Positions 31,622-54,488 of a stretch of DNA of 64,000 nucleotides are shown one piece after another. This DNA comes from Pseudoalteromonas piscicida. GTDB lineage: Bacteria; Pseudomonadota; Gammaproteobacteria; Enterobacterales; Alteromonadaceae. The notes under the pieces were generated by a model, which saw only the letters and a program-made list of their open reading frames with translations, was not told the DNA's origin and searched no databases. The stretch covers positions 561,501 through 625,500 of the forward strand of contig NZ_CP021647.1 in assembly GCF_002208135.1 (NCBI RefSeq), read 5' to 3'. Position 1 is the first letter of the stretch. Each line of letters opens with the position of its first letter. The translations under genes and the position numbers were made by a program.

Positions 31622-31789
31622 GTTAGTAAAATAGCGATCTATACCAAGTCAATTGCTGCTCCGCCGCTGGCGTCACCAAGCTTTATCTAAATCTCAAATC
31701 AATTACTTCTAAAAAGTTAGTAAAATTCTGATCTCAAAGACTATACAGCGGGCAGTAGATCAGTATTTTACTTAGTAAAATACTGATCT
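31622..31789. repeat. Cluster of four copies of a 19-nt dispersed motif, one inverted pair
   Basis: Copies of GTTAGTAAAATnnTGATCT at 31622-31640 (T to C in TGATCT) and 31716-31734 (perfect), then a reverse copy 31757-31775 overlapping a forward copy 31771-31789. The overlapping pair makes a 33-bp palindrome. They lie in the convergent spacer between the methyltransferase and DUF6942 genes. Further copies are listed elsewhere in this table. Confidence 0.85.
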
Positions 31790-31832
31790 ATCTATGAACT
31801 GGCATACAGTTCAGTTGCTACTTAGGATCTAC

Positions 31833-32372
31833 TCATTGTCTTATTATATCCACTAACTTATTGATTTTTATATTACTAAGTTGGCGATAATCCAAAAATG
31901 GGGAAATGACAAGGCGTAAGTTAAAGTCAACGGCAAACTCATTATCCAGCCAGATTAGATTGTTAGTAAAAATCTGATCTCTAAGTAATGATTTTGCGTA
32001 TGTTCGCCCTGCGATAATATGCCAATCGTATGTTTTTGCTGAAAAATCAGGCGTTGAGAAGAGCAGAGCTTCTTGACTTGAAGCTTGAAGTAACGCGCTA
32101 TCACGATATGACTGCCAAGTTGGATAGTTAGTAATATCGTGATCTGGCAGCTTTGCCGCAAATAAAAACTTGGCAAAAACATTGAAGATTTTCCGCCAAC
32201 CGTTTCCGCAGTGAGTATTAATATGTTCGATCTCTCCATTGGCTAACGCACTGACTTGCATCAAATTGTTATAAGGTTCTAAGCTTGGTGGGTGCTCAAT
32301 ATAAAACGCAACTTTGCCCGCTGTTGCACCCAAACCATGAGTTAGTATTTTTTTGCTCTGTGCTGTGTTCAT
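31833..32372 (-). CDS. DUF6942 family protein
   Basis: 179 aa. GLGATAGKVAFYIEHPPSLEPYNNL, GEIEHINTHCGNGWRKIFNVFAKFLFAA, PTWQSYRDSALLQASSQEALLF and HIIAGRTYAK suggest the DUF6942 family, common in Alteromonadales and Vibrionales and of unknown function. Cytosolic. Two copies of the dispersed 19-nt motif lie inside the coding sequence (encoding DHDITN and DQIFTNN) without breaking the frame. Convergent with the methyltransferase gene. Confidence 0.65.
   Translation of the reverse strand: MNTAQSKKILTHGLGATAGKVAFYIEHPPSLEPYNNLMQVSALANGEIEHINTHCGNGWRKIFNVFAKFLFAAKLPDHDITNYPTWQSYRDSALLQASSQEALLFSTPDFSAKTYDWHIIAGRTYAKSLLRDQIFTNNLIWLDNEFAVDFNLRLVISPFLDYRQLSNIKINKLVDIIRQ
31962..31980 (+). repeat. Dispersed 19-nt motif copy inside DUF6942 gene
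   Basis: GTTAGTAAAAATCTGATCT, one change from the consensus GTTAGTAAAATnnTGATCT. On the coding strand it reads AGATCA...ACTAAC and encodes DQIFTN. Confidence 0.8.
32127..32145 (+). repeat. Dispersed 19-nt motif copy inside DUF6942 gene
   Basis: GTTAGTAATATCGTGATCT, one change from consensus. On the coding strand it encodes DHDITN. Confidence 0.75.
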
Positions 32373-32547
32373 CGCGCTTTGCTTCGATCTACTTATATAA
32401 TTAGCATTACACGTAAGTCTAAAATAAATAAGGTGAAATTGGCATGGTAAGGGCCTGAATTTATTTTTATTCTTACTACTTGAACTATTGTTAATCTTAG
32501 CGCTTGGTTACTACGTATGACACTAAGATGGAACATGGAGAACTTAT

Positions 32548-33084
32548 ATGAAAGTACGACAGTTATTTTACACGGTGATTTTAGTGCTTGCAGTTTCAGC
32601 ATGCACAGGTCTTCCTGATGGCATTAAACCGGTTAAAGATTTTAATGTAGAGCGCTATACAGGCACTTGGTATGAAATCGCAAGATTAGATCATTCATTT
32701 GAAAGAGGGATGCAAAACGTTACCGCGACTTATAGCCAAAATCCCGACGGTTCAATTAAAGTCGTAAATAAGGGATATGTAACAGAGGAAGGTGAGTGGA
32801 AAGAAGCGGTTGGCAAAGCCAAGTTTGTTGCAAACGACGAAATAGCGCATTTAAAAGTGTCATTTTTTGGTCCGTTTTATGGCAGTTATGTGGTATTCGA
32901 GTTGGATGAAGATTACCAGTATGCATTTGTTACCAGCTACAATCGTGATTACCTTTGGTTGCTTTCTAGAGTGCCTAAAGTGTCCGATACCGTAATGAAC
33001 AAGTTTAAAACCATGTCTGAACAATATGGTTTTAACACCAATGAACTTATCTATATGAGGCACGAAACCGTTCAAAAAGAATAG
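32548..33084 (+). CDS. blc: Outer-membrane lipoprotein lipocalin (Blc-like)
   Basis: 178 aa with a lipoprotein signal (FYTVILVLAVSAC, Cys19). The lipocalin signature GTWYEIARLDHSFERGMQNV (residues 39-58) and the later YVVFELDEDYQYAFV and YLWLLSRVP motifs match bacterial lipocalins of the Blc family. These bind fatty acids or lysophospholipids at the inner face of the outer membrane. RBS: GGAG 8 nt before ATG region. Single gene. Confidence 0.93.
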   Translation: MKVRQLFYTVILVLAVSACTGLPDGIKPVKDFNVERYTGTWYEIARLDHSFERGMQNVTATYSQNPDGSIKVVNKGYVTEEGEWKEAVGKAKFVANDEIAHLKVSFFGPFYGSYVVFELDEDYQYAFVTSYNRDYLWLLSRVPKVSDTVMNKFKTMSEQYGFNTNELIYMRHETVQKE

Positions 33085-33280
33085 TGTAAACCCCCTTTAC
33101 ACTTAAGTTCCTTTCATGGGTACTTTAACATATTAACAGAAGGGAGGCTGTATGTGAGTTGAGTATAAGTGTCTTATTCCTGTAGGAAATGGTTAATAAA
33201 TCATTCAGTCAACTGTAACAGGAACACTTCACACTGTTGCACGCTTTACAAAAAACAATACTTAGGAACTGGAGTAACTT

Positions 33281-35199
33281 ATGAAGCGTGTAGCATATTC
33301 TTTAATTGCAGCGGCAGTTGCAATGGCACTTACAGCCTGTGATGGTGACGATGGAGAACAAGGTCCTGCGGGTCCTCAAGGTGAGCAGGGCACTGCTGGC
33401 CAAAATGGTACTAATGGAACAAACGGCACTGATGGTGCTGACGGTACAAACGGACAAAATGGCACTGACGGGCAGGATGGTCAGAATGGACAAGACGGTC
33501 AAAATGGTCGAGATGGTAGTTACAGTGTACCTGGCCTTGTTCGCATCGCAACAGTACCAGCTGGCGCTGAGGTAACTGGTCTATTTCTCTCTGAAGGGGG
33601 GACTTGTTCTTCAATGTTCAGCACCCTAATGACACAAACACAGCGACTGATAAGTTTAACAGCAAGCCTTTCAATACAGGTACTGTCGGTGTACTAACGG
33701 GTGTGAACTTCAATAATCTACCTGCAAATATTCCAAGCGCGCCAGTTCCTGCTTCGACCATGGAACAACAAACCGTGATTTCTGCGATTGGTCAATATCA
33801 AATTCTGGGCCAAACAGGCGATACATTTGCAAACCTAGGCGCTAAAGGTTTAGCAGGTGGTTTGGGTGTGCACTACAGCATCTCAACCGGCGAAGAAATT
33901 ATTAAAAATGATAACCCTGATTTCAATGGTTATATCCCTGTAGACGCAGACACAGGTTACCTATTCACAAACTGGGAAGCGTACCCAGGTGGTGTAAGTC
34001 GTTTGAAAATGAGCAAAGCGGCAACGGGTAAATGGTCAATTGAAGAAGCAATGATGGTAGACTTCGACGGTGTTAAAGGCACCGCAGCTAACTGTTTTGG
34101 TTCAGTATCGCCGTGGGGCACACCGCTGACTTCGGAAGAATGGATTGTCTGGTCGGCAGTTGATACTACACAAGATCCAGAGTGGAATAACCCTGCTGAA
34201 ACAGGTAACGACACAATGGAAGCGCTAATGGCACCTGATTTCCCTAACCCTTATCGCTACGGTTACATTGCAGAAATCAAAAATCCTACGACCGAAACGC
34301 CTGATGTTGTGAAACACTTCACAATTGGTCGTTATGAGCATGAAAACTCAGTTGTAATGCCGGACCGTCGTACTGTTTATTCATCACAAGATGATACCGG
34401 TGGCGTACTATTTAAATTTGTTGCAGATCAACCGGAAGACCTGAGTGCAGGTACCTTGTACGCAGCAAAACTAACTCAAGATGCAGGTCTTACCGATCCG
34501 GCTGTAACTGGCTTTGACATTAGCTGGGTTGAGCTTGGTCGTGGCAGTAATGCACAGATTGAAACTTGGGTGGCTGAATATGATGGCATCAATGAAACTG
34601 ACTATGTTGAAGGTCAAACAAGCTATCTATCAGTTGCTGACGTAAAAGCATGGGCTGAAGGCGCTGCGACTTACCCAACGGTTGAAAACGGCGGTGGTAA
34701 GGTAACAGCCGGCAAGCCTATGGACAACCGTGCAATTTTCCTAGAGTCTCGTCAAGCAGCGCGTCAAAAAGGGGCAACAGCTGAATGGCGTAAACTGGAA
34801 GGCTTAAGCATCAACCATAACCGCGTACTTGAAGCAGTAACTGGTCAAGACGTTGTTGCGGGTGAGGTGGTAGACAAAGCCTATATGTATATTGGTATCT
34901 CTGATATCGACAACACCATGATTGATGGCAAAGGTGACATGCAGCTTTCTGCGCGTGTTAAAGATTGTGGTGGTGTATACCGTGCACATATCGATAACAA
35001 CTATAACCTAACTCGCATTGAGCCAGTTGTTATGGGTGCAACTTACCGCTCTTCACTGACTGGCGCTGAGCGTTGTGACGTCAATCAGCTTTCACAGCCT
35101 GATAACGTAATCGTTATGGAAGATGGTCGCATCATTATTGGTGAAGATGGTTTCCAAGAAAACAACACGCTTTGGCTTTATGACCCTAAAGCAAAATAA
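33281..35199 (+). pseudogene. Collagen-like PhoX (DUF839) family protein, frameshifted at a G-run
   Basis: Two overlapping frames (33281-33697 and 33604-35199) form one gene. The first has a lipoprotein-like signal (VAYSLIAAAVAMALTAC) and about 19 Gly-X-Y collagen-like triplets (GEQGPAGPQGEQ..., GQDGQNGQDG), then SVPGLVRIATVPAGAEVTGLFLSEGG. The second continues as FFNVQHPNDTN and carries PhoX marks: FTNWEAYPGGVSRL, SPWGTPLTSEEW, RYEHENSVVMPDRRTVYSSQDDTGG, and a C-terminal propeller part. The break is at a run of six G (33596-33601); seven would restore SEGGDLFFNVQHP and a 639-aa protein. It is a sequencing error, a true mutation or phase variation. PhoX enzymes are Ca/Fe-dependent secreted alkaline phosphatases. 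Confidence 0.85.
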
Positions 35200-35209
35200 T
35201 TAAGCAAGT

Positions 35210-35242
35210 AGCAGCGCACTTCATGGTGCGCTGCTTTTTTTT
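35210..35242 (+). terminator. Rho-independent terminator
   Basis: AGCAGCGCAC (35210-35219) pairs with GTGCGCTGCT (35226-35235), followed by T8. It ends the PhoX transcript or attenuates it before the diheme lipoprotein gene. Confidence 0.88.
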
Positions 35243-35265
35243 AGCAAAATTTTGGAGTCATAAAA

Positions 35266-36921
35266 ATGAAATACGTTAGCCTAACTCTAGTGGCATTGAC
35301 GAGCGTAGCCTTGTTTGGTTGTAATGATGAACAGACTCAAGGGCTAACCAATACCGCACTTATGTCGGCGCAAACTACAGCACCTTATAAACAGGGTGAT
35401 GACATTCCTGCGACCGCGTTTATGCAGCACAATGAAGTCTATAACCCCGAGTCAGTGATCCCACCTCAGTGTTACACCAAAACGGATGGCGTGAATAACC
35501 CTTGCTATGCTTGCCATCAGTCATATGATGAAAAAAACCGACCAAATATGATGCGCGATGCCAATTTACAAGGCGCCTATGAGTTTTCCGATCTTGGATT
35601 TAAAAACCACTGGAAAAATTTATTTAAAGATCGTTCTGAGCTTATCAAAGGTATCTCAGATCAAGATATTACTAACTGGATCAACCAAGATAATTACAGC
35701 CCTTTCATCGAAAAACTAAAAAATAACCCTGATTGGAAAGGTGAGATCACCCCGCTTAACAACTTGGCATATCCAGAAAAAGCCTTCGATGACCTGGGTA
35801 TAGCAAAAGACGGCAGTGGCTGGGTGGCATTCAATTATAAGCCTTTTCCTAGTACTTTTTGGCCAACCAATGGCTCGACGGGGGATGTCATGATCCGCCT
35901 TGCTGACGCCTTCAGAGAAAAGGGCGAAACGTATAATCAGGACGTCTATCTTGCCAACTTAAGTCTGGTTGAAATGGCTGTAAAGGGGCTTGACGAAATA
36001 TCAACGCCAGTGATTTCTGAATCGCGAGTTGGCGTAGATTTAAATGGTGATGGCAAACTCACACAGATCACCAGCATGCTGCGCAGTGAACGTTACCTTG
36101 GTGATGCCAATACTATCGAGCTTGCTCATCAGTTATATCCACAAGACACTGAATTCTTACACACCGTTCGGTATATTGGAGTGGATGATAATGGCCAAGT
36201 ATTTAATGCGCCAAGAATGAAAGAAGTGCGCTACATGAAGAAGCACAACTTTAAATCCAAGCAATCACTCGGTGCTGCTTATTACAGAGAAGCGAAAGAA
36301 AAGTCATTCGAAAATTACCCACAAACGCTTTATTTGGGCGACCAAGGGATCAATAACAACTTCGGTTGGACGATTAACGGTTATATTGAAGACAAAAATG
36401 GTGCACTTCGTCCGCAACATGAGCAAGAGCTTGCTTTCTGTAATGGTTGTCACAAAACCATTGGCTCAACCTATGACCAAACCTTCTCGTTTGCGCGTAA
36501 AGTTGAAGGCAAACTGGGTTGGGGTTATATCAATTTAAAAGAGATGCAAGACGTACCTAACAAAGGCGAAGAGCGGGGCGAATTCTTGACCTATATGATG
36601 CGTGTTGGCGGCGGTGATGAGTTTAGGCAAAACCAAGAGATGCTTATGCGCTGGTTTAACGAAGATGGCACGGTAAACAGCAAAAAAGTGCAGTCTGCGA
36701 AAAACCTTTATGAATTGATCACACCATCAAAACCACGTGCGCTGGCACTGAATAAAGCCTACTTGACCATTGTCAAAGAGCAAAGTTACCTATTCGGTCG
36801 TGACGCCACCATAGTAAAAGCGCGTAATGTGCTTGAACAAGTCGATGATTCTCAACAGCCTCTAGAGCCAGAGCACCGATATGTATGGGATATGCAGCTG
36901 GATTGGAATAAAGGTGAGTAA
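35266..36921 (+). CDS. Secreted diheme c-type lipoprotein, unknown function
   Basis: 551 aa with a lipoprotein signal (YVSLTLVALTSVALFGC, Cys19). Two haem c sites: CYACH near residue 82 and CNGCH near 395. A DLNGDGKLTQ segment resembles a calcium-binding loop. The rest (HNFKSKQSLGAAYYREAKEKS, GDQGINNNFGWTING, WGYINLKEMQDVP) is a family I know only as hypothetical in marine Gammaproteobacteria. It follows the PhoX-like gene with only a terminator/attenuator between, and its RBS (TTTGGAG) is good. A redox partner role is inference. Confidence 0.75.
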   Translation: MKYVSLTLVALTSVALFGCNDEQTQGLTNTALMSAQTTAPYKQGDDIPATAFMQHNEVYNPESVIPPQCYTKTDGVNNPCYACHQSYDEKNRPNMMRDANLQGAYEFSDLGFKNHWKNLFKDRSELIKGISDQDITNWINQDNYSPFIEKLKNNPDWKGEITPLNNLAYPEKAFDDLGIAKDGSGWVAFNYKPFPSTFWPTNGSTGDVMIRLADAFREKGETYNQDVYLANLSLVEMAVKGLDEISTPVISESRVGVDLNGDGKLTQITSMLRSERYLGDANTIELAHQLYPQDTEFLHTVRYIGVDDNGQVFNAPRMKEVRYMKKHNFKSKQSLGAAYYREAKEKSFENYPQTLYLGDQGINNNFGWTINGYIEDKNGALRPQHEQELAFCNGCHKTIGSTYDQTFSFARKVEGKLGWGYINLKEMQDVPNKGEERGEFLTYMMRVGGGDEFRQNQEMLMRWFNEDGTVNSKKVQSAKNLYELITPSKPRALALNKAYLTIVKEQSYLFGRDATIVKARNVLEQVDDSQQPLEPEHRYVWDMQLDWNKGE

Positions 36922-36924
36922 AAT

Positions 36925-36949
36925 GGTAGGAGCTCAATGAGCTCCTACC
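36925..36949. terminator. Bidirectional terminator palindrome
   Basis: GGTAGGAGCTCA-A-TGAGCTCCTACC, a 12-bp palindrome between the diheme lipoprotein gene (ends 36921) and the convergent surface protein gene (ends 36956). Confidence 0.75.
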
Positions 36950-36955
36950 TTAGAG

Positions 36956-39838: not shown

Positions 39839-40057
39839 ACATAATCCTTTTGTTTTATAAGAACTTTATATTTAATGGGGTATCATGAGTTACTTACATT
39901 GTTTATTATCAGTAACTTAGTTTGGCTGTTTTTTTATGAAAAGCTTTTTGTCGAAAGAATATAGCACGAGTTATTGTTGGATAGCAGTAAGTAGTTAATT
40001 CTGGTTCACCTAATTATATCTCTGTGTAAATCATGAAGAGTTGGGAGTGGTTGTTGA

Positions 40058-40864: not shown

Positions 40865-40925
40865 ACCTTGAAGGTAAGATAAAACTTAAGCTCGGAGCAG
40901 AGCTGAGTTACTCTTCTCGTTTTCT

Positions 40926-41068
40926 GGATCAGAATTTAACTAACCAATAGTATTCCTTTGGCGCTTAGATCAGGATTTTACTAAGCTAGTCCGAAAACAA
41001 GACTATCAGATCATATTTTTACTAACTGATTAAGCTAATTGGGCTCATTAGATCACGGTTTTACTAAC
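40926..41068 (-). repeat. Phased array of four copies of the 19-nt motif, 41-42 bp apart
   Basis: AGATCAnnATTTTACTAAC copies at 40926-40944 (two changes), 40967-40985 (last base changed), 41008-41026 (one change) and 41050-41068 (one change). The start-to-start distances are 41, 41 and 42 bp, four turns of B-DNA. The 22-23 bp between copies are unrelated to each other. The array is in a convergent intergenic region. Confidence 0.85.
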
Positions 41069-41082
41069 TTATCTTAGTTTGA

Positions 41083-41184
41083 GTTAGTAAATTTGCGGTG
41101 TATTGCGTCATTATTGCTGATATTTTATGCTAAATGATGTGGTTTCAAAGAGTTAACAAAGGAATGTTAGTAAAATTGTGATCT
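41083..41184 (+). repeat. Half copy and full copy of the 19-nt motif, opposite orientation
   Basis: 41083 GTTAGTAAATTTG keeps only the left half of the motif. 41166-41184 GTTAGTAAAATTGTGATCT is a perfect match. Both point opposite to the four copies at 40926-41068. Confidence 0.7.
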
Positions 41185-41186
41185 AA

Positions 41187-41210
41187 AAAAGGCGCCATTA
41201 GTGGCGCCTT
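41187..41210 (-). terminator. Rho-independent terminator
   Basis: AAGGCGCCA (41189-41197) pairs with TGGCGCCTT (41202-41210), with a T6 run on the minus strand. It ends the DUF3325 operon. Confidence 0.88.
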
Positions 41211-41212
41211 AG

Positions 41213-41545
41213 TTAAAATATGATCCAATACAGCGTACTGAGTAGCAAACCGGTAATGACTAGGTAAAATAGTGATCTGAAATAACTTGGTTTAGTTGCA
41301 AAGGTAACGACAAGGAGTAGTACCGCTAAGGTCATATAACCAATAAACTCTAAGCTACCATAGGTTCCTTGAGTCTTAAGAGCCAGTGCTAAACTGCTGC
41401 CAAGGCAAAGCCAGCCGGCAATGGTTAATTGACTTGTTACGTTACCTTTTGGGCGTGTACCAAATACTTCTTTATAGTGATTGGGTTTTGCTACTGCAAA
41501 ACCCATAAACGCAAGCAGACAAAGTAAAAACGTTAGCCATTCCAT
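41213..41545 (-). CDS. DUF3325 domain-containing membrane protein
   Basis: 110 aa with three to four TM helices (LTFLLCLLAFMGFAVAKPNHYKEVFG opening, then GWLCLGSSLALAL, FIGYMTLAVLLLVVTF, YLVITGLLLSTLYW). The A-M/K-x-x-H-x-x-x-V-x-G opening is typical of DUF3325. Last gene of a three-gene operon; ATG overlaps the PepSY gene stop by one base. This trio is common next to siderophore uptake genes. A degenerate copy of the dispersed motif lies at 41260-41278. Confidence 0.85.
   Translation of the reverse strand: MEWLTFLLCLLAFMGFAVAKPNHYKEVFGTRPKGNVTSQLTIAGWLCLGSSLALALKTQGTYGSLEFIGYMTLAVLLLVVTFATKPSYFRSLFYLVITGLLLSTLYWIIF
41260..41278 (+). repeat. Degenerate 19-nt motif copy inside the DUF3325 gene
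   Basis: CTAGGTAAAATAGTGATCT, three changes in the left half and an intact AAAATnnTGATCT half. On the coding strand it reads in a different codon phase (RSLFYLV) from the copies in other genes. Confidence 0.55.
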
Positions 41546-43170
41546 TAGGCATTTACCTCGCGTTTTGCTTGGCGACGTGGTGTCACTGGCGCTGCTTTGG
41601 TACTGCCGAGCTTTTTGGCTTGAACCAAGAAACCGAACGCGATACCAATAGCCATCACATCAAAACCAAATAATACCCACTGACCATTAATGAAATAGCT
41701 CACAAGGCTGCCATCAGTGGTTAGCATGTTTACGACAGGCAGTAAGCCCCACACGATTGCATTTACTCTTGCAGATAGCAGCCACGCCAGCCTATCCGAC
41801 TTAAATAGAGCGGCTAGGGTGAATACTCCCCAAGTGACAAAGAACGCTAGAACTTCTTTGTCTGCACGTCCCGCTAATTCCATTGGAAGCAACCGGTTTG
41901 CATAAAAGAACATCGCCGTTGCGGCTGGCAGACCCATAATGGTGCCTAAATTGAGCGACTCCACAAGCCTAAGGCCTACACCCGGCTTGTCATCACCTTT
42001 GAGCTTTTGGCGCAGTCTTTTTGCCCACATAACCGCACCCGTTGCAATCATGGCACATCCTGCTAATCCAGCAACAAAGTATAACCAACGCAAAAGCGGC
42101 TCTGCTAACCGCCCTGTGTGTAGTGCTATCATTCCGCCGTAAAGATTTTCAGCGCCAGAAAGTGTCACATTGTGTGTTTTTAACAACTCTCCTGATGCCG
42201 CGCTGTACATCCAGCTAGGCGGATCATCTTGTATAGCACGTTGCGCATTGGCATAAAGCTTAATCGTTGCGCTTGTATCCCCTGGCGATGAGATCACAAT
42301 GCGGCGAAGCGGTGCGTCACCAGAGTTAGTAAAATAATGATCTAACGCTGTATTTAATGCTAGATCCGTTAGTGGCTGTGCTGTTTCAGGGATCGCAGCA
42401 AGAAATGGGTAGCGTTCAGCTCTAAGCGTTTTTGTATCTTCAAAGCGCTGCTCGGCAGGTTGTGGTAACAACATAAAGATAAGCGTTACTAAGCCAGTAT
42501 AAGTGATCATAATATGAAACGGTAAAGCCACCACTGACGAGAGATTGTGGGCGTCTAGCCAACTTCTCAGCCCCTTCCCGTTTCTAAATTGGAATAGGTC
42601 TTTGAAAATGCGCTTATGGATCACCACGCCAGAGATAAGTGCAATCAGCATAAACAGAGTTGCAAAACAGACAATCCAACGCGCGGTGATTGCGTTCATG
42701 TAATGCAAGTCAAAATGCAGACGGTAAAAAAAGTTACCGCCTCTAGTCTCCCTAAACTCAGGAAGTGCCTCCAGCGTTACTGGGTCAAGATACTCAGAGT
42801 GACGTTTTCCGCGCCTTTCTCCTTCGGCTGGCTTTTCGGAATACATTAATAGCAGGCTTGGGCGACGCTCCGTCGGCATTTCAATACGCCAAGACTCTGC
42901 GTTTGGCGCTATATCTTGAAATCGTTCGATACTCTTTTTGACTGTTTCATTTTGTTGAGTACTATCGTAATGAGGAAGATGGTGCGTTGCAGGTTGCGCC
43001 CACAGACTGATCTCATGTCTGAAAAAGCTCGCAGTACCGGCAAAAAAGATTAAAAACAGCAACCAACAAACGAGTAAACCAACCCAAGTGTGTAGCCAAG
43101 TCATACTACGGAAAAATGACTCTCTCACAGGGAGCCTCCAAAATGCGTCAAAGTACCGTAAAGAATACAA
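41545..43170 (-). CDS. PepSY-associated TM helix domain protein (iron-uptake associated)
   Basis: 541 aa. N-terminal TM (SMTWLHTWVGLLVCWLLFLIFFAGTASFFR) with W-x-H-x-W-x-G, PepSY-like periplasmic parts, then TM helices (WIVCFATLFMLIALISGVVIHKRIFKDLF; SVVALPFHIMITYTGLVTLIFML; LYFVAGLAGCAMIATGAVMWAKRLR; and a C-terminal bundle). Proteins of this kind are thought to be inner-membrane ferric-siderophore reductases (inference from family). Middle gene of the operon. A perfect copy of the dispersed motif at 42325-42343 encodes DHYFTN. Confidence 0.9.
   Translation of the reverse strand: MYSLRYFDAFWRLPVRESFFRSMTWLHTWVGLLVCWLLFLIFFAGTASFFRHEISLWAQPATHHLPHYDSTQQNETVKKSIERFQDIAPNAESWRIEMPTERRPSLLLMYSEKPAEGERRGKRHSEYLDPVTLEALPEFRETRGGNFFYRLHFDLHYMNAITARWIVCFATLFMLIALISGVVIHKRIFKDLFQFRNGKGLRSWLDAHNLSSVVALPFHIMITYTGLVTLIFMLLPQPAEQRFEDTKTLRAERYPFLAAIPETAQPLTDLALNTALDHYFTNSGDAPLRRIVISSPGDTSATIKLYANAQRAIQDDPPSWMYSAASGELLKTHNVTLSGAENLYGGMIALHTGRLAEPLLRWLYFVAGLAGCAMIATGAVMWAKRLRQKLKGDDKPGVGLRLVESLNLGTIMGLPAATAMFFYANRLLPMELAGRADKEVLAFFVTWGVFTLAALFKSDRLAWLLSARVNAIVWGLLPVVNMLTTDGSLVSYFINGQWVLFGFDVMAIGIAFGFLVQAKKLGSTKAAPVTPRRQAKREVNA
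42325..42343 (+). repeat. Perfect 19-nt motif copy inside the PepSY gene
   Basis: GTTAGTAAAATAATGATCT. On the coding strand it encodes DHYFTN, the same frame as the copies in the DUF6942 and DJ-1 genes. Confidence 0.8.
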
Positions 43171-43430: not shown

Positions 43431-43489
43431 AGCACCCCTTCAAAAGACAGCAAACGTAATAGAATATTATCCAATAATTTGCATCTAAA

Positions 43490-44784: not shown

Positions 44785-44804
44785 ACGTCAGCGGTGAAAT
44801 ATGC

Positions 44805-45209: not shown

Positions 45210-45219
45210 CTAAATCAGT

Positions 45220-45845: not shown

Positions 45846-45875
45846 AATAAAGCGCACAGGGTTGGGACTGTGCGC
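45846..45875 (-). terminator. Rho-independent terminator
   Basis: GCGCACAG (45852-45859) pairs with CTGTGCGC (45868-45875); on the minus strand it is followed by a T-rich stretch. It ends the ABC-2 exporter operon. Confidence 0.8.
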
Positions 45876-45903
45876 TTGTGGTTGTGGTGCTATACCAACT
45901 GTA

Positions 45904-46629: not shown

Positions 46630-46631
46630 GG

Positions 46632-47519: not shown

Positions 47520-47630
47520 GGTCTTCGCTCCTACTGAACTGTACGAGTTGCAGTATGCGCGGCTTTAAGGTGAAGCGTGAGTGAGGGTTGTCAGGAAATA
47601 AAATGACAAATGTCAGGACTTGAAAAGATA

Positions 47631-47658
47631 ACTCACAGGTGTAGCAACACCTGTGAGT
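47631..47658 (-). terminator. Rho-independent terminator
   Basis: 12-bp perfect stem ACTCACAGGTGT/ACACCTGTGAGT (47631-47642, 47647-47658), 4-nt loop, T-rich on the minus side. It ends the DUF2141 gene. Confidence 0.85.
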
Positions 47659-47667
47659 ATTCAAGCA

Positions 47668-48177
47668 TTACAGCCCTGTCATTTTCGATAAATGCGTAGA
47701 GAGGGCAAGTTGGATCTTAGTGTCAGGGGCCTTTACAGTAAACAAAGCCTCTTCAAAATCGCCTTTTGAAAAGCTATCGTGAATGTTATTCGACAGTGCG
47801 TAAGGCTCACTTGGCATGCCGGTAAATGGGAAGATCATTCTATCCATGCCACCATCACCATCTTCGTCATGAATTACGTGGATCGCATACTGTCCCGCAG
47901 GCACGCCTTCAAAAGTGACCGTAGTGGTAGGAGTTTGCGGTGTGACAATCAGCTTGCGAAAAAAGTGAGCGTCAGGATCATTCACATTTTTATCGCTGTG
48001 GTAGTCCGCGCTGTTGTCAAATAACAGTACTAACATTTGACCGTCGGTATTGGTCACATCTGTGATCTCAACCGTAAGATTCGTTGGGGGACCTGCAACC
48101 GTATTTACGCTTACCGGACTTGTTGAACTACACGCCGCAAGTAGTGCCAGCGCAAACAATAAACTTAGGGACCTCAT
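47668..48177 (-). CDS. DUF2141 domain-containing lipoprotein
   Basis: 169 aa with a lipoprotein signal (SLSLLFALALLAACSS, Cys16). DUF2141 features: NLTVEITDVTNTDGQMLVLLF, VTFEGVPAGQYAIHVIHDEDGDGGMDRMIF and MPSEPYALSNNIHDSF. The HDEDGDG loop could bind calcium. Beta-sandwich protein of unknown role at the outer membrane or periplasm. Confidence 0.88.
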   Translation of the reverse strand: MRSLSLLFALALLAACSSTSPVSVNTVAGPPTNLTVEITDVTNTDGQMLVLLFDNSADYHSDKNVNDPDAHFFRKLIVTPQTPTTTVTFEGVPAGQYAIHVIHDEDGDGGMDRMIFPFTGMPSEPYALSNNIHDSFSKGDFEEALFTVKAPDTKIQLALSTHLSKMTGL

Positions 48178-48322
48178 CCTTTGCTCCTATTAAGGGTTAG
48201 TTTGTAGCTCCACAAGCTTGTCAGATAATTGTGTAAATACTGTTAAAAATTGTTAGATGCAGGAAATAATAAAGACTATTCTGACCAGTGTGACTAAGCA
48301 CTGTAATAGAACGGAATAATCA

Positions 48323-48337
48323 TTCGATTTAATCGAA
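48323..48337. promoter_or_regulatory. LysR-type box upstream of pirin gene
   Basis: TTCGAT-TTA-ATCGAA, a 15-bp palindrome of the T-N11-A kind, 110 nt upstream of the pirin start. The related E. coli genes yhaK/yqjG are linked to the LysR-type gene yhaJ, so a LysR-type activator is a reasonable guess; no such gene is adjacent here. Confidence 0.5.
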
Positions 48338-48447
48338 CGAAATGGACAAGTTTGACTAATTTTATTCTCGCATAGGTTTGGTAGGCTATCCATTAAATAA
48401 TTGAGCTGAACTTATTATCCCAAGTTCAAGCTAAACCGAGAGGCATT

Positions 48448-49275
48448 ATGAAAATTATTCGAATTAACAAAGCACAGGCAACACAAGATGGTGCTGGCGT
48501 AAATATTAACCGCATCGCTGGATTTGACGGCAAGAGTTTAGATCCTTATCTCATGATTGATGAATTGAAATCAGATAATCGCAGTGACTTTATGGCTGGC
48601 TTCCCGCCGCACCCACACCGAGGCATTGAAACCTTTACCTATATTCGTAAAGGCGGCTTTGAGCATAGAGATCAAATGGGTAATGTCAAAGCCATTCGCA
48701 GCGGTGATGTGCAGTGGATGAGTACCGGGCGTGGTGTAGTGCATTCAGAAATGCCGCTTAGCGACGCCGAGGGCATGCATGGCTTTCAAATTTGGTTAAA
48801 TATGCCAGCAAAAGACAAAATGCGTGCGCCTAGATATCAAGATACAACCGAGCATCCTGCGCCACAAATAGTGATAGGAAAGGTCGGTTATTTCAAGGCA
48901 TTGGCTGGCACGTGGCAAGTGGCAGGCGAAGTACTTACATCGTCATTACAGTCACTTGCGGGCGAGGGCGCACTTGCAGATGTGACTTTAACTGCGGGAA
49001 GTCGATTGCATCTTGAACTGGAGCAGTTTGGCAAGGTGATGATCTACATTCATTCGGGCCGGCTTGAAAACTATGGGGAGCAAACGTTGCTTGAGCTTGA
49101 CCCAAGCCAAGACCTTGATCTCTTAGCGACGGATGATGTCGGCTTTTTGGTCCTTGCAGGGCAGCCAATTAATGAAAAAATAGCGCATATGGGGCCATTT
49201 GTGATGAATACTCAAGAGGAGCTTCATCAAGCGGTAAGAGATTATCAACAAGGCCGCTTCGGCGATATTGTATAG
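48448..49275 (+). CDS. Pirin family protein (YhaK/YhhW-like)
   Basis: 275 aa, bicupin. The N-terminal cupin has the metal site H-x-H...E...H (PPHPHRGIETFTYIRKGGFEH, then VQWMSTGRGVVHSE); DGAGVNINRIAG and DPYLMIDELKS are typical openings. Pirins bind Fe and some act as quercetin dioxygenases; others act as redox sensors. It is followed 9 nt later by glutathionyl-hydroquinone reductase, so the operon probably handles quinone-type electrophiles. Confidence 0.93.
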   Translation: MKIIRINKAQATQDGAGVNINRIAGFDGKSLDPYLMIDELKSDNRSDFMAGFPPHPHRGIETFTYIRKGGFEHRDQMGNVKAIRSGDVQWMSTGRGVVHSEMPLSDAEGMHGFQIWLNMPAKDKMRAPRYQDTTEHPAPQIVIGKVGYFKALAGTWQVAGEVLTSSLQSLAGEGALADVTLTAGSRLHLELEQFGKVMIYIHSGRLENYGEQTLLELDPSQDLDLLATDDVGFLVLAGQPINEKIAHMGPFVMNTQEELHQAVRDYQQGRFGDIV

Positions 49276-49284
49276 GGGGTTTAC

Positions 49285-50268
49285 ATGGGGTTATTAATAG
49301 ATGGTCAATGGCACGATAAGTGGTATGACACAAAAAGCAGCCAAGGCAAATTTGAGCGTGAGTCTGCAAAATTAAGAAACTGGGTAACAGAAGACGGCAG
49401 TGCGGGGCCAACGGGTAAAGCGGGTTTTAAAGCCGAGTCCGGACGCTATCATTTATATGTTTCCCTTGCATGTCCTTGGGCACATAGAACGCTCATTTTC
49501 CGAAAGCTCAAACAATTGGAGGCGCATATCGACGTGTCGATAGTTGACCCGGATATGTTAGATCAAGGTTGGCGCTTTACAAGTCAGCGTCCAGAAGTCG
49601 GTGATGGCCTGTATCAGCTAAGCTTTATGCATCAGCTGTATACTAAAAACGACCCAAGTTATTCGGGCCGAGTTACGGTCCCCGTCCTTTGGGATAAACA
49701 AACGGAGCAAATCGTTAGCAACGAATCGAGTGAAATCATTCGTATGTTTAATAGTGCGTTTAACCAGGTAACGGGAAACGAGACTGACTATTATCCAGAG
49801 GTACTACAGCATGAAATCGATGAAATAAACGAATTTGTTTATCACAATATTAACAATGGCGTATATAAGGCCGGATTTGCGACAACGCAAGATGCTTATC
49901 ATAGTGCGGTAACCGCGTTATTTAAAGCGTTGGATAAGCTCGAAACCAGACTGGCTGCGCAACGTTATCTTGTGAAAGGACAATTAACGGAAGCCGACTG
50001 GCGATTATTTACGACTCTCATCCGTTTCGACAGCGTGTATCATGGCCACTTTAAGTGCAACATTAAGCAAATCGAAGATTACCGCAATATTTCTGCGTAT
50101 GTGCGTGACTTATATCAACATCAAGGTATTGCAGATACGGTTGATTTTTATCACATTAAAAGGCACTACTACTTTAGCCATACGATGATCAATCCCACCC
50201 AAGTCGTACCAGAAGGGCCAAGCATTGACTATCAGCGTTTTCATAACCGGAGCGGCATCACGTTATAA
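49285..50268 (+). CDS. yqjG: Glutathionyl-hydroquinone reductase (Xi-class GST, YqjG-like)
   Basis: 327 aa. Catalytic Cys63 in ACPWAHRTLIFRKLK, preceded by ESGRYHLYVSLACPW, with SNESSEIIRMFNSAF and EADWRLFTTLIRFDSVYHGHFKCN, all diagnostic of Xi-class GSTs. They reduce glutathionyl-hydroquinones. Forms an operon with the pirin gene, repeating the E. coli association of YqjG with the pirin-like YhaK. Confidence 0.94.
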   Translation: MGLLIDGQWHDKWYDTKSSQGKFERESAKLRNWVTEDGSAGPTGKAGFKAESGRYHLYVSLACPWAHRTLIFRKLKQLEAHIDVSIVDPDMLDQGWRFTSQRPEVGDGLYQLSFMHQLYTKNDPSYSGRVTVPVLWDKQTEQIVSNESSEIIRMFNSAFNQVTGNETDYYPEVLQHEIDEINEFVYHNINNGVYKAGFATTQDAYHSAVTALFKALDKLETRLAAQRYLVKGQLTEADWRLFTTLIRFDSVYHGHFKCNIKQIEDYRNISAYVRDLYQHQGIADTVDFYHIKRHYYFSHTMINPTQVVPEGPSIDYQRFHNRSGITL

Positions 50269-50403
50269 GTAACCTAACTTCTTATCCTGAGTTCAGGTTA
50301 AGTAATCTTTGTCTTTGTCTTTGTTTCTATTTGGACTAGATTTAATAATGCGTTTGCTGGTAGTTGTCATTTGTACTTAAGTGCAAACGCATTTTAGGTC
50401 TTT

Positions 50404-53400
50404 ATGCCTAACAGTCAGGCCACTGTCCAAGGAGAAAATGTGTCTTCTTCCAATATTGCTAAGGGCGCTATTGTACTTATGCTCGCTGTGATGGTGAGTG
50501 CTATCTTATATTTTGAAAATAGTATCCATCGCGACCTTAACGAGAGCTTTTACCAGCGGTTAGAGCAGGTTTATACGGCACAAAATAGTATTTATTTGGG
50601 AGAGATCGACGACAATCGCCGGTTTCTTTATTTTCTACTAGACACCCCACCAATTCAGGGCATCGCCAGAGCCGAAAAAAACGATGGTATTGACCCTCAA
50701 GAAAACACTCAGCTTGATGTCTGGCGGGCACGACTAAGCACGATTTTTAGGTCAATACTATATTCCTATGATGGCATTAATCAGATCCGCCTAATTGATG
50801 CCCATACAGGGATGGAAATGGTTAGAGTTGAGCGGCAGTTAGGCCAAGTGATCACGGTTCCTGATAGCAAATTACAAGACAAAAGTAAGCACGACTATTA
50901 CGTTCGAGCACTGCAACTTCCAGAGCGCACTATCTATTCCACAACCATTAATTTGAATCGAGAACACGGACAAATTGTCACGCCTTTTCAACCAACCAAA
51001 CGTTTTACTTTACCGACTTACGATATAGATAACGACCTTTTTGGTATACTGATCATCAATACTGATGCCGAAAAAATGATGGACAGAATCGTCTCTCGAG
51101 CGCCGGATATACAAAAAGTGATGTTCTTAGGTGCAGATGATTCGTTTATTTATCATCCAGAGTTTTCGCTACGATATAGCAAGGATCTAAACCCAGAAAT
51201 CAGCTTTAATACTCTGTATCGCGTTACTCCATGGTCCAGTAAAATCCAGCTGGTAGAAGATAAGCAAACGGGTGAACAGTTTTTAGCGTTAATTAGTAAG
51301 GTTGAAGGGGCCAACTTTAATAACTTAGAGGCTAAGCTGGTTAATCTCATTCCCTTTACTGCTTATCAGCAAAGCCTTAATGAAAAACGATTAACGACCT
51401 ATGTTTTGCTAGCCGTTGCTAGTAGTGTCTTTGCCTTAATCTTTTTTGCGTTTTGGCAATATACTAGTAGCTTGCGCACCCTTGATTCTACGCGAGCAGA
51501 GTTCAAAGCAATTTTGGATGGTGCGTCTGACGGCGTATTGGGTTTTGATGATAATTTAAAGCTCACCAGCTTTAATGAGTCAGCACAGCGCTTTTTTAAG
51601 CAATTAAATAACAGTCGCTTAGGTAGCAACCCACAGTTTCTGCCAGAAGCTGTGCATCAGTTTTTATTTCACTACGCCAATATGGTTTTACAGGGCGAAG
51701 TGGTGGAATCTAAGCCATTACAACTAGACTTGAATGCACGTGAAAATATTTGGCTTTCACTTAGCTTATCGCCAATTTACGCACGAAGTGGACGCATTCA
51801 GGGGGTGGCATTATTTGTTGAAGACATCACAGCCAAGAAAGAAGCGGAAGCGCAGTTAGTTGGTGCCAATGAGCGACTCGAGCAAGAAGTGAAAGAGCGT
51901 ACTAAAGAGCTGGTGGATGCGCGAGATAAAGCCGCTAAAGCGTCAGAAGTAAAAAGCGCGTTTATATCCACTATTAGCCATGAAATGAGAACGCCTCTCA
52001 ATGGGATTTTAGGGTCACTTAATTTGGTGAGAAAAGAGCCAGTTTCTAAGCTCCAGCATAAGTACTTAGAAATGATGGAAACGAGCTCGACTACGCTCTT
52101 GTCGTTAATTAACGATGTACTGGATCTGTCGAAGATAGAAGCGGGCAAGCTAGACATTGATAATGAACCATTCAACCCGCTCTCTGTCATTGAGCATGTC
52201 GCGCTTTCTATGTCGGCAAAGGCCAAGGAACAGGATATCACTTATATTTTAGACCAAACCGGTTTAGAACACATTGAACTGTGCGGTGATGCGGCGCGCG
52301 TTAAACAAATAATTTATAACCTTCTCAGTAACGCGATTAAATTTACCAAAAAAGGACATGTGAAATTGACTGTCACTACTGAGCAACTTGACGACACGGT
52401 ATGGCTTAAAGTTATTGTGGAGGACACTGGAGTGGGAATTGAAAAGGCTAATCAAAACAAGCTATTTCAATCGTTTAGCCAAGAATCCATTAACACCTCA
52501 AACGAGTTTGGTGGTACAGGCCTTGGACTCTCCATTTGCAAGCAGTTAGTTGAAAAAATGCTCGGCCATATTCATTTTGAGAGTGAAAAGTTTAAAGGCA
52601 GCAAGTTTTGGTTTGAATTACCATTTTCCAGTGTGCAAACTAAGCCTATCAACGTGCCTGAAGTGTTGGCAGGTAAAACAGTCTCTGTGTTCAGCAAAAC
52701 AAAACTAGAGTCAGACACTATCGCCAAACTCATTGTCAAATGTGGTGGTGAATACGTTGATAAAGGAGCAAAGAGTGATATATGCATCATTACAAACAAG
52801 CAAGATTATATGCAAGTGAAATCGGCTCAAAATCAGTTTGAGAAACTAATTTTGGTAGGGGATGAGCTTCAGCATATTAACGACTCCGATAACATTGTGC
52901 ATATCTCTTCACCTCTTCGGATTGGAGAGTTTGTCGCGCTATTTGACTTAAACAAAGCAATTAGATTACAGCCTAGCTTGAAGAAATCGGGTGAGACAGT
53001 CGCGTTAAGCGGTAACTTGGTCGCAGGCTGTCACTTCTTGGTTGTGGACGATAATCAAATCAACCGGATTGTGGCAAAAGGCATTTTGGAAGGACAAGGG
53101 GCTAAGGTGAGTTTTGCCGTTGATGGCCAAGACGCGGTGAATAAACTACTGTTATTTGAGCATCAAGAGGTTGATTTTGATGCTATCTTTATGGACTGTA
53201 ATATGCCAGGAATGGATGGTTATCAAGCCACAAGAGCAATTCGTCAGGGTCAAGGTGGTGATAAGTACAAAGATGTGATCGTTATTGCGATGACAGCCAG
53301 CGCTCTTGCTGGTGAAAAAGAGCGTTGCCTAAATGTGGGAATGGATGAGTTTGTAACTAAACCTGTGGTCATCGAGCGGTTATTTGAAGTGCTAGATACG

Positions 53401-53838
53401 CTAGGTGTGCATGCTAAAGATGATGATTCTGTGCTTATTCACCCGTTTGAGAGCGTGGCAGAAGTACAAACGAGCCTGCCGATAAATGAAGCTGATGTAC
53501 TCGAGCGCCTTTCTGGAAATGAAGAATTACTTAAAAAGATGTACACCTTGTTCTTGAATGACTCTGAAAATCAAATGCAACAGCTCAGATTAAGTATTAA
53601 AAATAGTAATTGTGACGCATCAGCAAGATATAGCCATGCACTTAAAGGTCAAGCTGGGGATTTAGCTGCAGAAGGACTCTTTGATTTGTTCGATAAAATA
53701 GAGACTTATGCGCGAGAACACCAAGCTGGGCAATGTAAATCATACTTGGAGCAGGCGCAAAGTGAATACGATAAAGTCGTAGTATTTGCGAAAAAGCGCG
53801 TGAGTGAGCTAGAGTTCGCAGATATCAACAACGGCTAA
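50404..53838 (+). CDS. Hybrid sensor histidine kinase with receiver and Hpt domains
   Basis: 1144 aa. TM1 about 21-38, a large periplasmic (Cache-like) sensor about 40-330, TM2 about 331-352, PAS about 365-470, and a coiled coil. HisKA has His526 (ISHEMRTPLNG), followed by HATPase with N, G1 (DTGVGI) and G2 (GGTGLGLSI) boxes. A degenerate receiver lies at about 755-850, an intact receiver has Asp931 (FMDCNMPGMDGY), and a C-terminal Hpt has His1078 (YSHALKGQAGD). This is the ArcB/BarA-like phosphorelay layout. An in-frame GTG at 50440 with AAGGAG in front is an alternative start. No response regulator gene adjoins, so it is an orphan kinase here. Confidence 0.93.
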   Translation: MPNSQATVQGENVSSSNIAKGAIVLMLAVMVSAILYFENSIHRDLNESFYQRLEQVYTAQNSIYLGEIDDNRRFLYFLLDTPPIQGIARAEKNDGIDPQENTQLDVWRARLSTIFRSILYSYDGINQIRLIDAHTGMEMVRVERQLGQVITVPDSKLQDKSKHDYYVRALQLPERTIYSTTINLNREHGQIVTPFQPTKRFTLPTYDIDNDLFGILIINTDAEKMMDRIVSRAPDIQKVMFLGADDSFIYHPEFSLRYSKDLNPEISFNTLYRVTPWSSKIQLVEDKQTGEQFLALISKVEGANFNNLEAKLVNLIPFTAYQQSLNEKRLTTYVLLAVASSVFALIFFAFWQYTSSLRTLDSTRAEFKAILDGASDGVLGFDDNLKLTSFNESAQRFFKQLNNSRLGSNPQFLPEAVHQFLFHYANMVLQGEVVESKPLQLDLNARENIWLSLSLSPIYARSGRIQGVALFVEDITAKKEAEAQLVGANERLEQEVKERTKELVDARDKAAKASEVKSAFISTISHEMRTPLNGILGSLNLVRKEPVSKLQHKYLEMMETSSTTLLSLINDVLDLSKIEAGKLDIDNEPFNPLSVIEHVALSMSAKAKEQDITYILDQTGLEHIELCGDAARVKQIIYNLLSNAIKFTKKGHVKLTVTTEQLDDTVWLKVIVEDTGVGIEKANQNKLFQSFSQESINTSNEFGGTGLGLSICKQLVEKMLGHIHFESEKFKGSKFWFELPFSSVQTKPINVPEVLAGKTVSVFSKTKLESDTIAKLIVKCGGEYVDKGAKSDICIITNKQDYMQVKSAQNQFEKLILVGDELQHINDSDNIVHISSPLRIGEFVALFDLNKAIRLQPSLKKSGETVALSGNLVAGCHFLVVDDNQINRIVAKGILEGQGAKVSFAVDGQDAVNKLLLFEHQEVDFDAIFMDCNMPGMDGYQATRAIRQGQGGDKYKDVIVIAMTASALAGEKERCLNVGMDEFVTKPVVIERLFEVLDTLGVHAKDDDSVLIHPFESVAEVQTSLPINEADVLERLSGNEELLKKMYTLFLNDSENQMQQLRLSIKNSNCDASARYSHALKGQAGDLAAEGLFDLFDKIETYAREHQAGQCKSYLEQAQSEYDKVVVFAKKRVSELEFADINNG

Positions 53839-53881
53839 AGTGAGTGAGGTCTTAGTTCAACAATGACCTTATTTACCATTA

Positions 53882-54457
53882 TTAAATTCTGGGCCAGTCA
53901 TAATCCATTTGGGTTGCTGTTTTTCCTGCAACAGATTGCCCAAAGCGTTTTTTCACCAGCTCTAAACTCATATCGATACCTGCTGAAATACCCGCTGAGC
54001 TAGTAAAATTTTGATCCATAATAAACCTTACGTCTTCAACGACTTCTAGAGAGGGATATTGCTCTCTCAAATCGTCGATATCCTGCCAATGGGTGGTAAC
54101 TCGCTTGCCATCAATGAGGCCTGCTTCGGCATATAAGAACACACCTGTACAAACTGATGCGCACTGAGAGGTATGATTCGCTGTTTCTGCAAGCCAATTA
54201 AGTACGTTGTGATCATTGCAAATTTGGTGATGAATTCCGCCGACAACGATGAGCAAATCAAATTTTGGATGTGAGTAGATACTGTAATGGGGGTTTACAC
54301 TCATGCCGCCACGCGAGGTTACTGGCACATGACTTGGTGCGACAAGGCTGACGTTAATCGGGGTTTCGATAAATCGCTTTGCGGTGTTGAATACCTCAAA
54401 CGGACCACAAAAATCTAAACACTCCGCACCGTCATAGATGAAAATGCCAACTTCCAT
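53882..54457 (-). CDS. DJ-1/PfpI family protein (isonitrile hydratase-like)
   Basis: 191 aa from MEVGIFIYDGAE (GGGGAA 6 nt upstream; a GTG four codons earlier is weaker). Nucleophile Cys in ASVCTGVFLYAEAGL after LIVVGG, plus TTHWQDIDDL and TSSAGISAGIDMSL, the set found in AraC-associated and isonitrile hydratase-like DJ-1 members. Cytosolic, enzymatic function unproven. One copy of the dispersed motif (53999-54017) lies in the region encoding DQNFTSS and another (54470-54488) directly upstream of the RBS. Confidence 0.88.
   Translation of the reverse strand: MEVGIFIYDGAECLDFCGPFEVFNTAKRFIETPINVSLVAPSHVPVTSRGGMSVNPHYSIYSHPKFDLLIVVGGIHHQICNDHNVLNWLAETANHTSQCASVCTGVFLYAEAGLIDGKRVTTHWQDIDDLREQYPSLEVVEDVRFIMDQNFTSSAGISAGIDMSLELVKKRFGQSVAGKTATQMDYDWPRI
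53999..54017 (+). repeat. 19-nt motif copy inside the DJ-1 gene
   Basis: GCTAGTAAAATTTTGATCC, two changes from consensus. On the coding strand it encodes DQNFTS, the same frame as the PepSY and DUF6942 copies. This segment also belongs to the conserved TSAG region of the family, so similarity here could be partly chance. Confidence 0.5.
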
Positions 54458-54469
54458 TATTTTCCCCAC

Positions 54470-54488
54470 AGATCAGTTTTTTACTAAC
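54470..54488 (-). repeat. 19-nt motif copy upstream of the DJ-1 gene
   Basis: AGATCAGTTTTTTACTAAC, one change from the consensus AGATCAnnATTTTACTAAC. It starts 13 nt upstream of the DJ-1 start codon. Confidence 0.8.

What the first reader, a model, noticed from the sequence alone, without database searches (positions are those of the whole stretch)
31622..54488. Dispersed 19-nt motif GTTAGTAAAATnnTGATCT in about 16 copies, origin and function unknown
Reading both strands I count about 16 copies: 31622, 31716, 31757(-), 31771, 31962, 32127, 40926(-), 40967(-), 41008(-), 41050(-), 41083 (half), 41166, 41260 (degenerate), 42325, 53999, 54470(-). The two halves TTAGTAAAAT and TGATCT are conserved while the two bases between are free, so this looks like a bipartite recognition site, not a copied gene piece. 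It contains GATC, a Dam site. Copies sit in three patches and in both intergenic and coding DNA. They are not tied to promoters, which argues against an ordinary transcription-factor site. Candidate explanations are DNA-uptake-like signals, nucleoid or macrodomain protein sites, or a locally spreading short element.
Basis: partly seen in the sequence, partly recalled or inferred. Interest (0 to 1): 0.82.

Follow-up and report, generated by a model that had tools for sequence, protein, structure and literature searches.

The report
Origin-protein binding sites linking two chromosomes
The repeated 19-letter word is very probably the docking site of the protein that starts copying of this marine bacterium's second chromosome, and a matching cluster of the same sites on the main chromosome is a strong candidate for the unknown signal that keeps the copying of the two chromosomes in step.

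Summary
In detail: 17 matches in the window against 0.23 expected. Genome-wide, 28 of the 29 matches with up to 2 mismatches lie in one 98-kb stretch of the 1.19-Mb Pseudoalteromonas chromid (Chr2) or in one 385-bp cluster on the main chromosome (Chr1).

The stretch begins at the chromid origin, beside repA and parAB. The motif sits beside repA in 74 of 74 fetched ori2 loci and diverges with RepA in two plasmids carrying RepA relatives. RepA's predicted fold is nearest to RctB, pi and RepE. I read it as the iteron of the chromid initiator RepA, mostly with a Dam site.

The window's arrays are remote iteron arrays on the early-replicated side of ori2. The Chr1 array near fba is present in 60 of 60 genomes as a block pointing one way, a gap, then a block pointing the other way; its GATC sites are kept and its spacers are not.

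It is a candidate crtS-like timing site; Xie et al. 2021 found nothing resembling crtS. Binding and timing are inferred, not shown. Position data fit but do not discriminate.

The parts
8040..8058 (-). single RepA-iteron-like site (20.2 bits) inside ORF 5825-8986
31100..31118 (-). iteron site inside the methyltransferase ORF 30861-31523
31622..31640 (+). iteron site (patch 1, between ORFs)
31716..31734 (+). iteron site, perfect match (patch 1)
31757..31789 (.). two overlapping inverted iterons (31757-31775 minus, 31771-31789 plus) forming a perfect 33-bp inverted repeat
31962..31980 (+). iteron site inside the DUF6942 ORF
32127..32145 (+). iteron site inside the DUF6942 ORF
35658..35676 (-). 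iteron site inside ORF 35266-36921
40926..41068 (-). four minus-strand iterons at 40926, 40967, 41008, 41050 (spacing 41, 41, 42 bp), left half of a divergent array
41166..41278 (+). three plus-strand iterons at 41166, 41208, 41260 (41083 is a weak fourth), right half of the divergent array, reaching into the 3' end of the DUF3325 ORF
42325..42343 (+). iteron site, perfect match, inside the PepSY_TM ORF
53999..54017 (+). iteron site inside the DJ-1/PfpI ORF
54470..54488 (-). iteron site just before the DJ-1/PfpI ORF
55012..55030 (-). weaker iteron site (16.5 bits) inside the peptidase M3 ORF

Best explanation
The motif is the iteron (binding site) of RepA, the replication initiator of the Pseudoalteromonas chromid. 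The copies at ori2 would load RepA and start chromid replication together with DnaA. The window's patches would be remote arrays, replicated within about 100 kb of ori2 firing, that take up RepA and hold back re-initiation. The array on Chr1 near fba would be the inter-chromosomal signal: when the Chr1 fork passes it, its RepA-binding state changes and the chromid origin is released, giving the synchronous termination measured by others. Shown here: site distribution, conservation, layout, covariation with RepA, and a predicted initiator fold. Shown by others: RepA plus ori2 is the minimal replicon and the two chromosomes terminate together. Inferred: that RepA binds the motif, that GATC methylation gates the binding, and that the Chr1 array sets timing. 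My step-wise probabilities: RepA iterons 0.93; replication-control role for the remote and Chr1 arrays 0.8; Chr1 array as timing trigger 0.55.
Against: No binding data. Timing by position does not discriminate: in 13 closed genomes taken as unidirectional the Chr1 array leaves 255 +/- 112 kb (65-441) more than the chromid needs and r = 0.88, but Chr1 and Chr2 sizes themselves correlate at 0.93, the partial r is 0.45 (p = 0.12), and a fixed distance from ori1 fits as well (SD 109 against 112 kb). The V. cholerae crtS is not made of iterons, and the other RctB sites on V. cholerae Chr1 have uncertain function. G001 keeps the Chr1 array without RepA in its assembly. Groups of three or four sites on the chromid lack GATC, and about a fifth of left-half sites at ori2 lack it too, so Dam gating cannot apply to all sites. 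L261 has no match to the chromid motif even at 4 mismatches, L262 only two at 4, away from its iterons. L265, a fourth RepA-relative plasmid, shows no site in the 4,967 bases held, but one side of its repA is cut off by the record end.
Confidence: 0.8

Rival explanations
1. The sites are RepA iterons but act only as passive titration or handcuffing sites: the chromid arrays buffer RepA, and the Chr1 array is one more sink that adds negative control without giving a timing trigger.
For: Arrays sit in the first ~100 kb after ori2, like the V. cholerae region 40 kb from ori2 compared with datA in a review (passages). RctB sites on V. cholerae Chr1 other than crtS have uncertain function. Position data do not favour a timer.
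Against: A passive sink would seem to need no fixed layout, yet the Chr1 array keeps its divergent blocks in 59 of 59 arrays found within 900 bp of fba, and in the 38 compared its spacers diverge while sites and spacing stay; it stays near the same gene in 60 of 60 genomes.
Confidence: 0.3
2. The sites are parS2 centromere sites bound by the chromid ParB2, clustered near ori2 as centromeres usually are.
For: parA2B2 lies beside the ori2 array, and several genomes have an array about 2.5-3 kb from ori2, where parB should end. Many parS sites lie near origins (established knowledge).
Against: The motif is not a palindrome. ParB2 is only 62.5-65.9% identical to this one in 10 of the 12 chromid records listed, while RepA is 89.9-99.8% in the 12, and the ori2 motif is kept across the genus. 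Plasmid L261 has a PRTRC-type partition gene and still has GATC-half-matching iterons at repA. RepA-relative plasmids are not among the 40 best ParB2 places (4,960 more not listed). A Chr2 centromere on Chr1 would be odd.
Confidence: 0.05
3. The motif is an operator of a transcription factor whose regulon includes repA, isocitrate lyase, fba, the PepSY/DUF3325 pair and others.
For: Several arrays touch metabolic genes, and an array lies beside isocitrate lyase in 6 of 7 other genomes sampled (the gene was not in the stretch held for the seventh).
Against: Arrays lie downstream of fba, inside ORFs and at 3' ends as well as in intergenic DNA, with up to 8 sites in each. The motif follows repA onto plasmids. 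Nearly all good matches are within 100 kb of ori2 or at one Chr1 place.
Confidence: 0.03

Closest known systems
RctB / ori2 / crtS system of Vibrio cholerae chromosome 2
   Same: Secondary chromosome with its own iteron initiator; predicted tandem winged-helix fold nearest to RctB; most iterons carry GATC; remote initiator sites tens of kb from ori2; a conserved initiator-type site locus on Chr1.
   Different: RepA is 404 aa, with no Pfam or NCBIfam hit and no solved-structure match by sequence better than E 0.035. Iterons are 19 bp and of a different sequence from the 12-mers. The Chr1 locus is an array of iterons, whereas crtS shares no iteron motif. Chromids are mostly unidirectional (Xie et al.). 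No activity has been shown.
Iteron plasmids of the Rep superfamily (RepE of F, pi of R6K, RepA of IncA/C pRA1)
   Same: Tandem winged-helix fold, iteron arrays beside the rep gene, DnaA boxes; pRA1's initiator is 27.5% identical and has at least 12 repeat copies after its gene.
   Different: Here the iterons also form arrays far from the origin and on another chromosome, which a plasmid does not need.
datA-type titration locus
   Same: Cluster of initiator sites replicated soon after the origin.
   Different: Made of iterons for RepA, not DnaA boxes; several arrays rather than one; activity untested.
Pseudoalteromonas chromid replicon as described by Xie et al. 2021
   Same: The same repA, ori2, parA2B2, tus cluster, and the same synchrony question.
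   Different: The passages I read name no iterons for this replicon, no remote arrays and no Chr1 array; they report finding no site like Vibrio crtS.

Membership tests
Iteron-type replication initiator and origin | Initiator with tandem winged-helix Rep fold | tested here: met
Iteron-type replication initiator and origin | Several copies of one motif in the origin beside the initiator gene | tested here: met
   74 of 74 loci, 3-8 sites upstream of repA
Iteron-type replication initiator and origin | DnaA boxes in the origin | tested here: met
   TTWTNCACA 2.07 per 700 bp, at least 1 in 74 of 74, against 0.14 shuffled
Iteron-type replication initiator and origin | Initiator binds the motif and opens the origin | not testable with these tools
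   only indirect: motif co-varies with RepA in plasmids
crtS (chromosome 2 replication triggering site) | Conserved locus on the main chromosome recognised by the chromid initiator | tested here: inconclusive
   conserved locus with initiator-type sites found in 60 of 60 genomes; recognition not shown
crtS (chromosome 2 replication triggering site) | Non-iteron sequence distinct from ori2 iterons | tested here: not met
   the array is made of 4-8 ori2-type iterons; the V. cholerae crtS shares no similarity with the iteron motif
crtS (chromosome 2 replication triggering site) | Distance to ter1 tracks the chromid replication span | tested here: inconclusive
   r = 0.88 in 13 genomes but partial r = 0.45, p = 0.12; the bidirectional genome G002 fits with 218 kb
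crtS (chromosome 2 replication triggering site) | Its replication triggers ori2 firing | not testable with these tools
   needs relocation plus marker frequency analysis
parS centromere of ParB2 | Palindromic site | tested here: not met
   consensus STTAGTAAAANNNTGATCY is not an inverted repeat
parS centromere of ParB2 | Follows parB across replicons | tested here: inconclusive
   related iterons follow repA onto plasmid L261 with a PRTRC-type ParB and onto L260; RepA-relative plasmids not among the 40 best ParB2 places, 4,960 more not listed
datA-like titration locus | Cluster of initiator sites replicated soon after the origin | tested here: met
   25 of 25 C2 matches with up to 2 mismatches lie at ori2 or within 98 kb of it on the early side
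datA-like titration locus | Lowers free initiator and delays re-initiation | not testable with these tools
   needs deletion and copy-number assay

The most novel reading that the evidence does not exclude
Pseudoalteromonas independently evolved a crtS-like checkpoint built from the chromid's own iterons. A divergent array near fba on Chr1 holds RepA while its GATC sites are fully methylated. Passage of the Chr1 fork makes them hemimethylated and duplicates them, RepA is released or remodelled, and ori2 fires after the time of about 200-300 kb of fork travel. Remote iteron arrays, including a GATC-less set that cannot be gated by Dam, are then copied early and shut the origin again.
Probability: 0.35. 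Interest if true: 0.92.

Novelty: new variant of a known kind. Interest (0 to 1): 0.84.

Why it matters
How a second chromosome learns when to start copying is known mainly from crtS of the Vibrios, with a methylation-based control reported in Agrobacterium (passages). A 2021 paper showed that Pseudoalteromonas chromosomes terminate together, found no crtS-like site and called for further study; a 2026 survey still asked for such timers in other lineages. The Chr1 iteron array gives a concrete element of a few hundred base pairs, present in 60 of 60 genomes examined, that can be deleted or moved. If it times ori2, the same regulatory logic was reached with a different initiator sequence and a different kind of DNA site. 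If it does not, its strict conservation still needs an explanation.

Tried and rejected
Timing by position: the array-to-dif1 distance against the chromid span (15 closed genomes tabulated, 11 used, with G002, G021, G047 and G059 lacking a dif-like match on one replicon) and array-to-opposite-of-ori1 against chromid length (13 genomes). Both correlate, but so do the chromosome sizes, so I do not count this as evidence for a timer. G040 is an outlier (695 kb) because its dif1-like match lies about 500 kb from the point opposite ori1. In one search, G002 was left out because its skew shows bidirectional replication and G017 because its chromid is asymmetric; of the 13 kept, 11 have a dif2-like match near ori2 (about 14-156 kb away) and G021 and G047 were only assumed to be unidirectional. 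G001 (no chromid) and G020 (Chr1 in pieces) were not tabulated.

First dif search with the E. coli-derived pattern found 2 of 17 genomes; a pattern taken from those matches found at least one match in 17 of 17.

DNA uptake signal, macrodomain site, mobile short element and promoter operator were considered and set aside because of the two-place distribution, diverged spacers and ORF/3'-end positions. parS2 was considered seriously (see rivals).

RepA against solved structures by sequence gave only chance hits (best E 0.035); the fold comparison was needed. Pfam and NCBIfam gave nothing for RepA.

An idea that Chr1 sites are weaker than ori2 sites was dropped: at 8 bits or more their mean scores are alike (19.3 and 19.1).

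Rows dropped: fba paralogue matches with E above 1e-20 (16 rows) were ignored; only 38 of 60 genomes with 30-32 bp spacing of the inner sites were used for the identity comparison. The matrix used for the Chr1 scan was learned from ori2 sites found with a GATC-containing consensus, so it favours GATC sites and the counts 369 of 374 and 369 of 408 are biased upwards; detection by the left half alone gives 219 of 238 and 349 of 452. Listings were cut short, so per-site positions there were seen for only some of the genomes. The 60 genus genomes are a sample drawn from a larger group.

Papers: PMC7858055 passages and section 9; PMC11711613 passages and section 6; PMC12053903, PMC13342612, PMC8496264, PMC5854411, PMC6090056 passages only; others only in search listings. 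My statement that no iteron or crtS-like array is in print for Pseudoalteromonas rests on searches of an open-access library that lacks most subscription papers and bioRxiv.
Full report
WHAT IS THERE. The motif is real and far above chance: 17 matches with up to 3 mismatches in the window against a shuffle mean of 0.23. The window is C2:561501-625500 of a two-replicon genome, C1 4,128,210 bp and C2 1,188,838 bp. Of 29 genome-wide matches with up to 2 mismatches, 25 lie on C2 between 518,007 and 615,988, 3 lie in one cluster at C1:434.3-434.7k, and 1 is isolated; the reversed control pattern gives 3. With a weight matrix learned from ori2 sites, 35 of the 37 C2 sites scoring 15 bits or more lie at C2:518.0-616.5k, in 560,501 scanned bases of C2.

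THE ORIGIN. C2:518.0-518.4k lies between a 404-aa protein with no Pfam or NCBIfam family and a ParA/ParB pair, with a Tus gene nearby. This is the repA-ori2-parA2B2-tus cluster of which Xie et al. 2021 (PMC7858055, passages) showed by truncation that repA plus ori2 is the minimal replicon. Seventy-four of 74 ori2 loci fetched (73 titled Pseudoalteromonas, 1 an unnamed bacterial MAG) have 3-8 sites upstream of repA, 408 in all, giving the consensus STTAGTAAAANNNTGATCY with GATC in 369. The same 700 bp hold 2.07 DnaA boxes and 12.9 GATC on average, against 0.14 and 1.5 after shuffling.

THE WINDOW'S ARRAYS. In sampled stretches, GC skew on C2 is positive from ori2 rightwards through about 1,060 kb and near zero or slightly negative in the last ~130 kb, and a dif-like site lies 1,061 kb from ori2 in that direction. 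So the chromid replicates essentially one way and the window's sites, 51-98 kb from ori2, are copied early. The array at 40,926-41,278 has minus sites at 41-42 bp steps followed by plus sites. The pair at 31,757-31,789 is a perfect 33-bp inverted repeat. Genes around the window arrays (UDG, PepSY, DUF3325, lipocalin, DUF6942, methyltransferase, SbcC-like, metallophosphatase) are found together near sites at 35-52 kb of another chromid, G022. An array also lies beside isocitrate lyase in G028, G059, G040, G022, G017 and G002 (6 of 7 genomes sampled; the gene was not in the stretch held for G025), at about 10 to 62 kb from ori2. Part of that array lacks GATC in five genomes (G000, G022, G028, G040, G059), so there may be two site classes, one that Dam cannot mark.

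THE CHR1 ARRAY. Within 900 bp downstream of fba (fructose-bisphosphate aldolase), 59 of 60 genomes have 4-8 sites, 374 in all, 369 with GATC. The fba coding control has 6 sites over 60 genomes and shuffles give 0.067 per genome. In the 60th, G016, the array lies about 2 kb further on. At 10 bits or more, 59 of 59 arrays begin with a minus block followed by a plus block (2 have one further minus site at the end); same-strand neighbours are 30-32 bp apart in 190 of 242 steps, with 21, 41-43 and 62 as other common steps (period 10.4, R = 0.92, rows not independent). In 38 genomes with standard spacing, sites are 76% identical between genomes, their GATC 100%, the roughly 12-bp spacers 36%. Because the matrix favours GATC, I also detected sites by the left half alone: 219 of 238 Chr1 sites carry GATC, against 349 of 452 at ori2. 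This is strong conservation of sites and spacing over unconstrained DNA.

HOW IT MAY WORK. Xie et al. found that the chromosomes terminate together in the strains studied and proposed that a Chr1 site might trigger the chromid, but found no crtS-like sequence. The Chr1 array is the natural candidate. Because its GATC sites are kept and Dam and SeqA genes are present (4 of 4 genomes), I propose that fork passage changes RepA binding there and frees or remodels RepA for ori2, and that the early chromid arrays then draw RepA away. RctB iterons need full methylation for binding (PMC11711613, passages), and V. cholerae also has initiator sites some tens of kb from ori2 that were compared with datA (PMC6090056, passages). 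These are analogies, not tests.

TIMING TEST. In 13 closed genomes taken as unidirectional (11 with a dif2-like match near ori2, 2 assumed) the array leaves 255 +/- 112 kb more Chr1 to copy than the chromid needs, always positive (65-441). In the bidirectional genome G002 (skew flips near the middle of C2) it leaves 218 kb if half the chromid is counted. A delay equal to about 200 kb is cited for V. cholerae. But chromosome sizes correlate at 0.93, the partial correlation is 0.45 (p = 0.12), and a fixed distance from ori1 fits equally well. So position is compatible with a timer and does not prove one.

CAVEATS. No binding, methylation or deletion data exist here. G001 has the Chr1 array but no RepA; it is a one-contig 3.6-Mb assembly, so the chromid may simply be missing, but that is a guess. 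In V. cholerae the other RctB sites on Chr1 have uncertain function, and only crtS, which is not an iteron, strongly enhances ori2. The novelty claim rests on an open-access library.

VERDICT. RepA iterons: very likely (0.93). Replication-control arrays: likely (0.8). Chr1 array as the missing timing site: a good, testable candidate (0.55). It may work like, but is not a member of, the crtS family.

Noticed in passing
L033:7725-7832 (C2:532724-532831) and matching places in G022, G028, G040, G059: A group of three or four iteron-like sites beside isocitrate lyase lacks GATC (ends such as TGGTTT), with GATC-bearing sites near by; a possible Dam-independent site class.
   Followed up: partly
window 31757-31789: Two iterons overlap head to head as a perfect 33-bp inverted repeat, the kind of site a dimeric Rep protein might use as an operator.
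   Followed up: no
L261:2928-3883 (NZ_CP032092.1) and L262:2518-3906 (NC_015708.1): Pseudoalteromonas plasmids with RepA relatives carry large arrays of diverged iterons that mostly still contain GATC, useful for mapping RepA-DNA specificity.
   Followed up: partly
L126 (G001 C1, near 3357000): A single-contig genome without RepA keeps an intact six-site Chr1 array; either the chromid is missing from the assembly or it was lost recently.
   Followed up: no
G023:C7:471413-472625: The repA match is split into two pieces with a stop in the second, so this chromid initiator may be broken or misassembled in that record.
   Followed up: no
window 33281-33697: A 138-aa ORF with a collagen triple-helix repeat (Pfam PF01391) overlaps the start of a PhoX-like ORF.
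   Followed up: no
C1 of G000, G028, G056: The Chr1 array lies on opposite replichores in close relatives (434 kb from ori1 in G000, 734 and 761 kb in G028 and G056) while its distance to the dif1-like site stays 1,331-1,350 kb; one inversion around ter could explain this trivially.
   Followed up: partly
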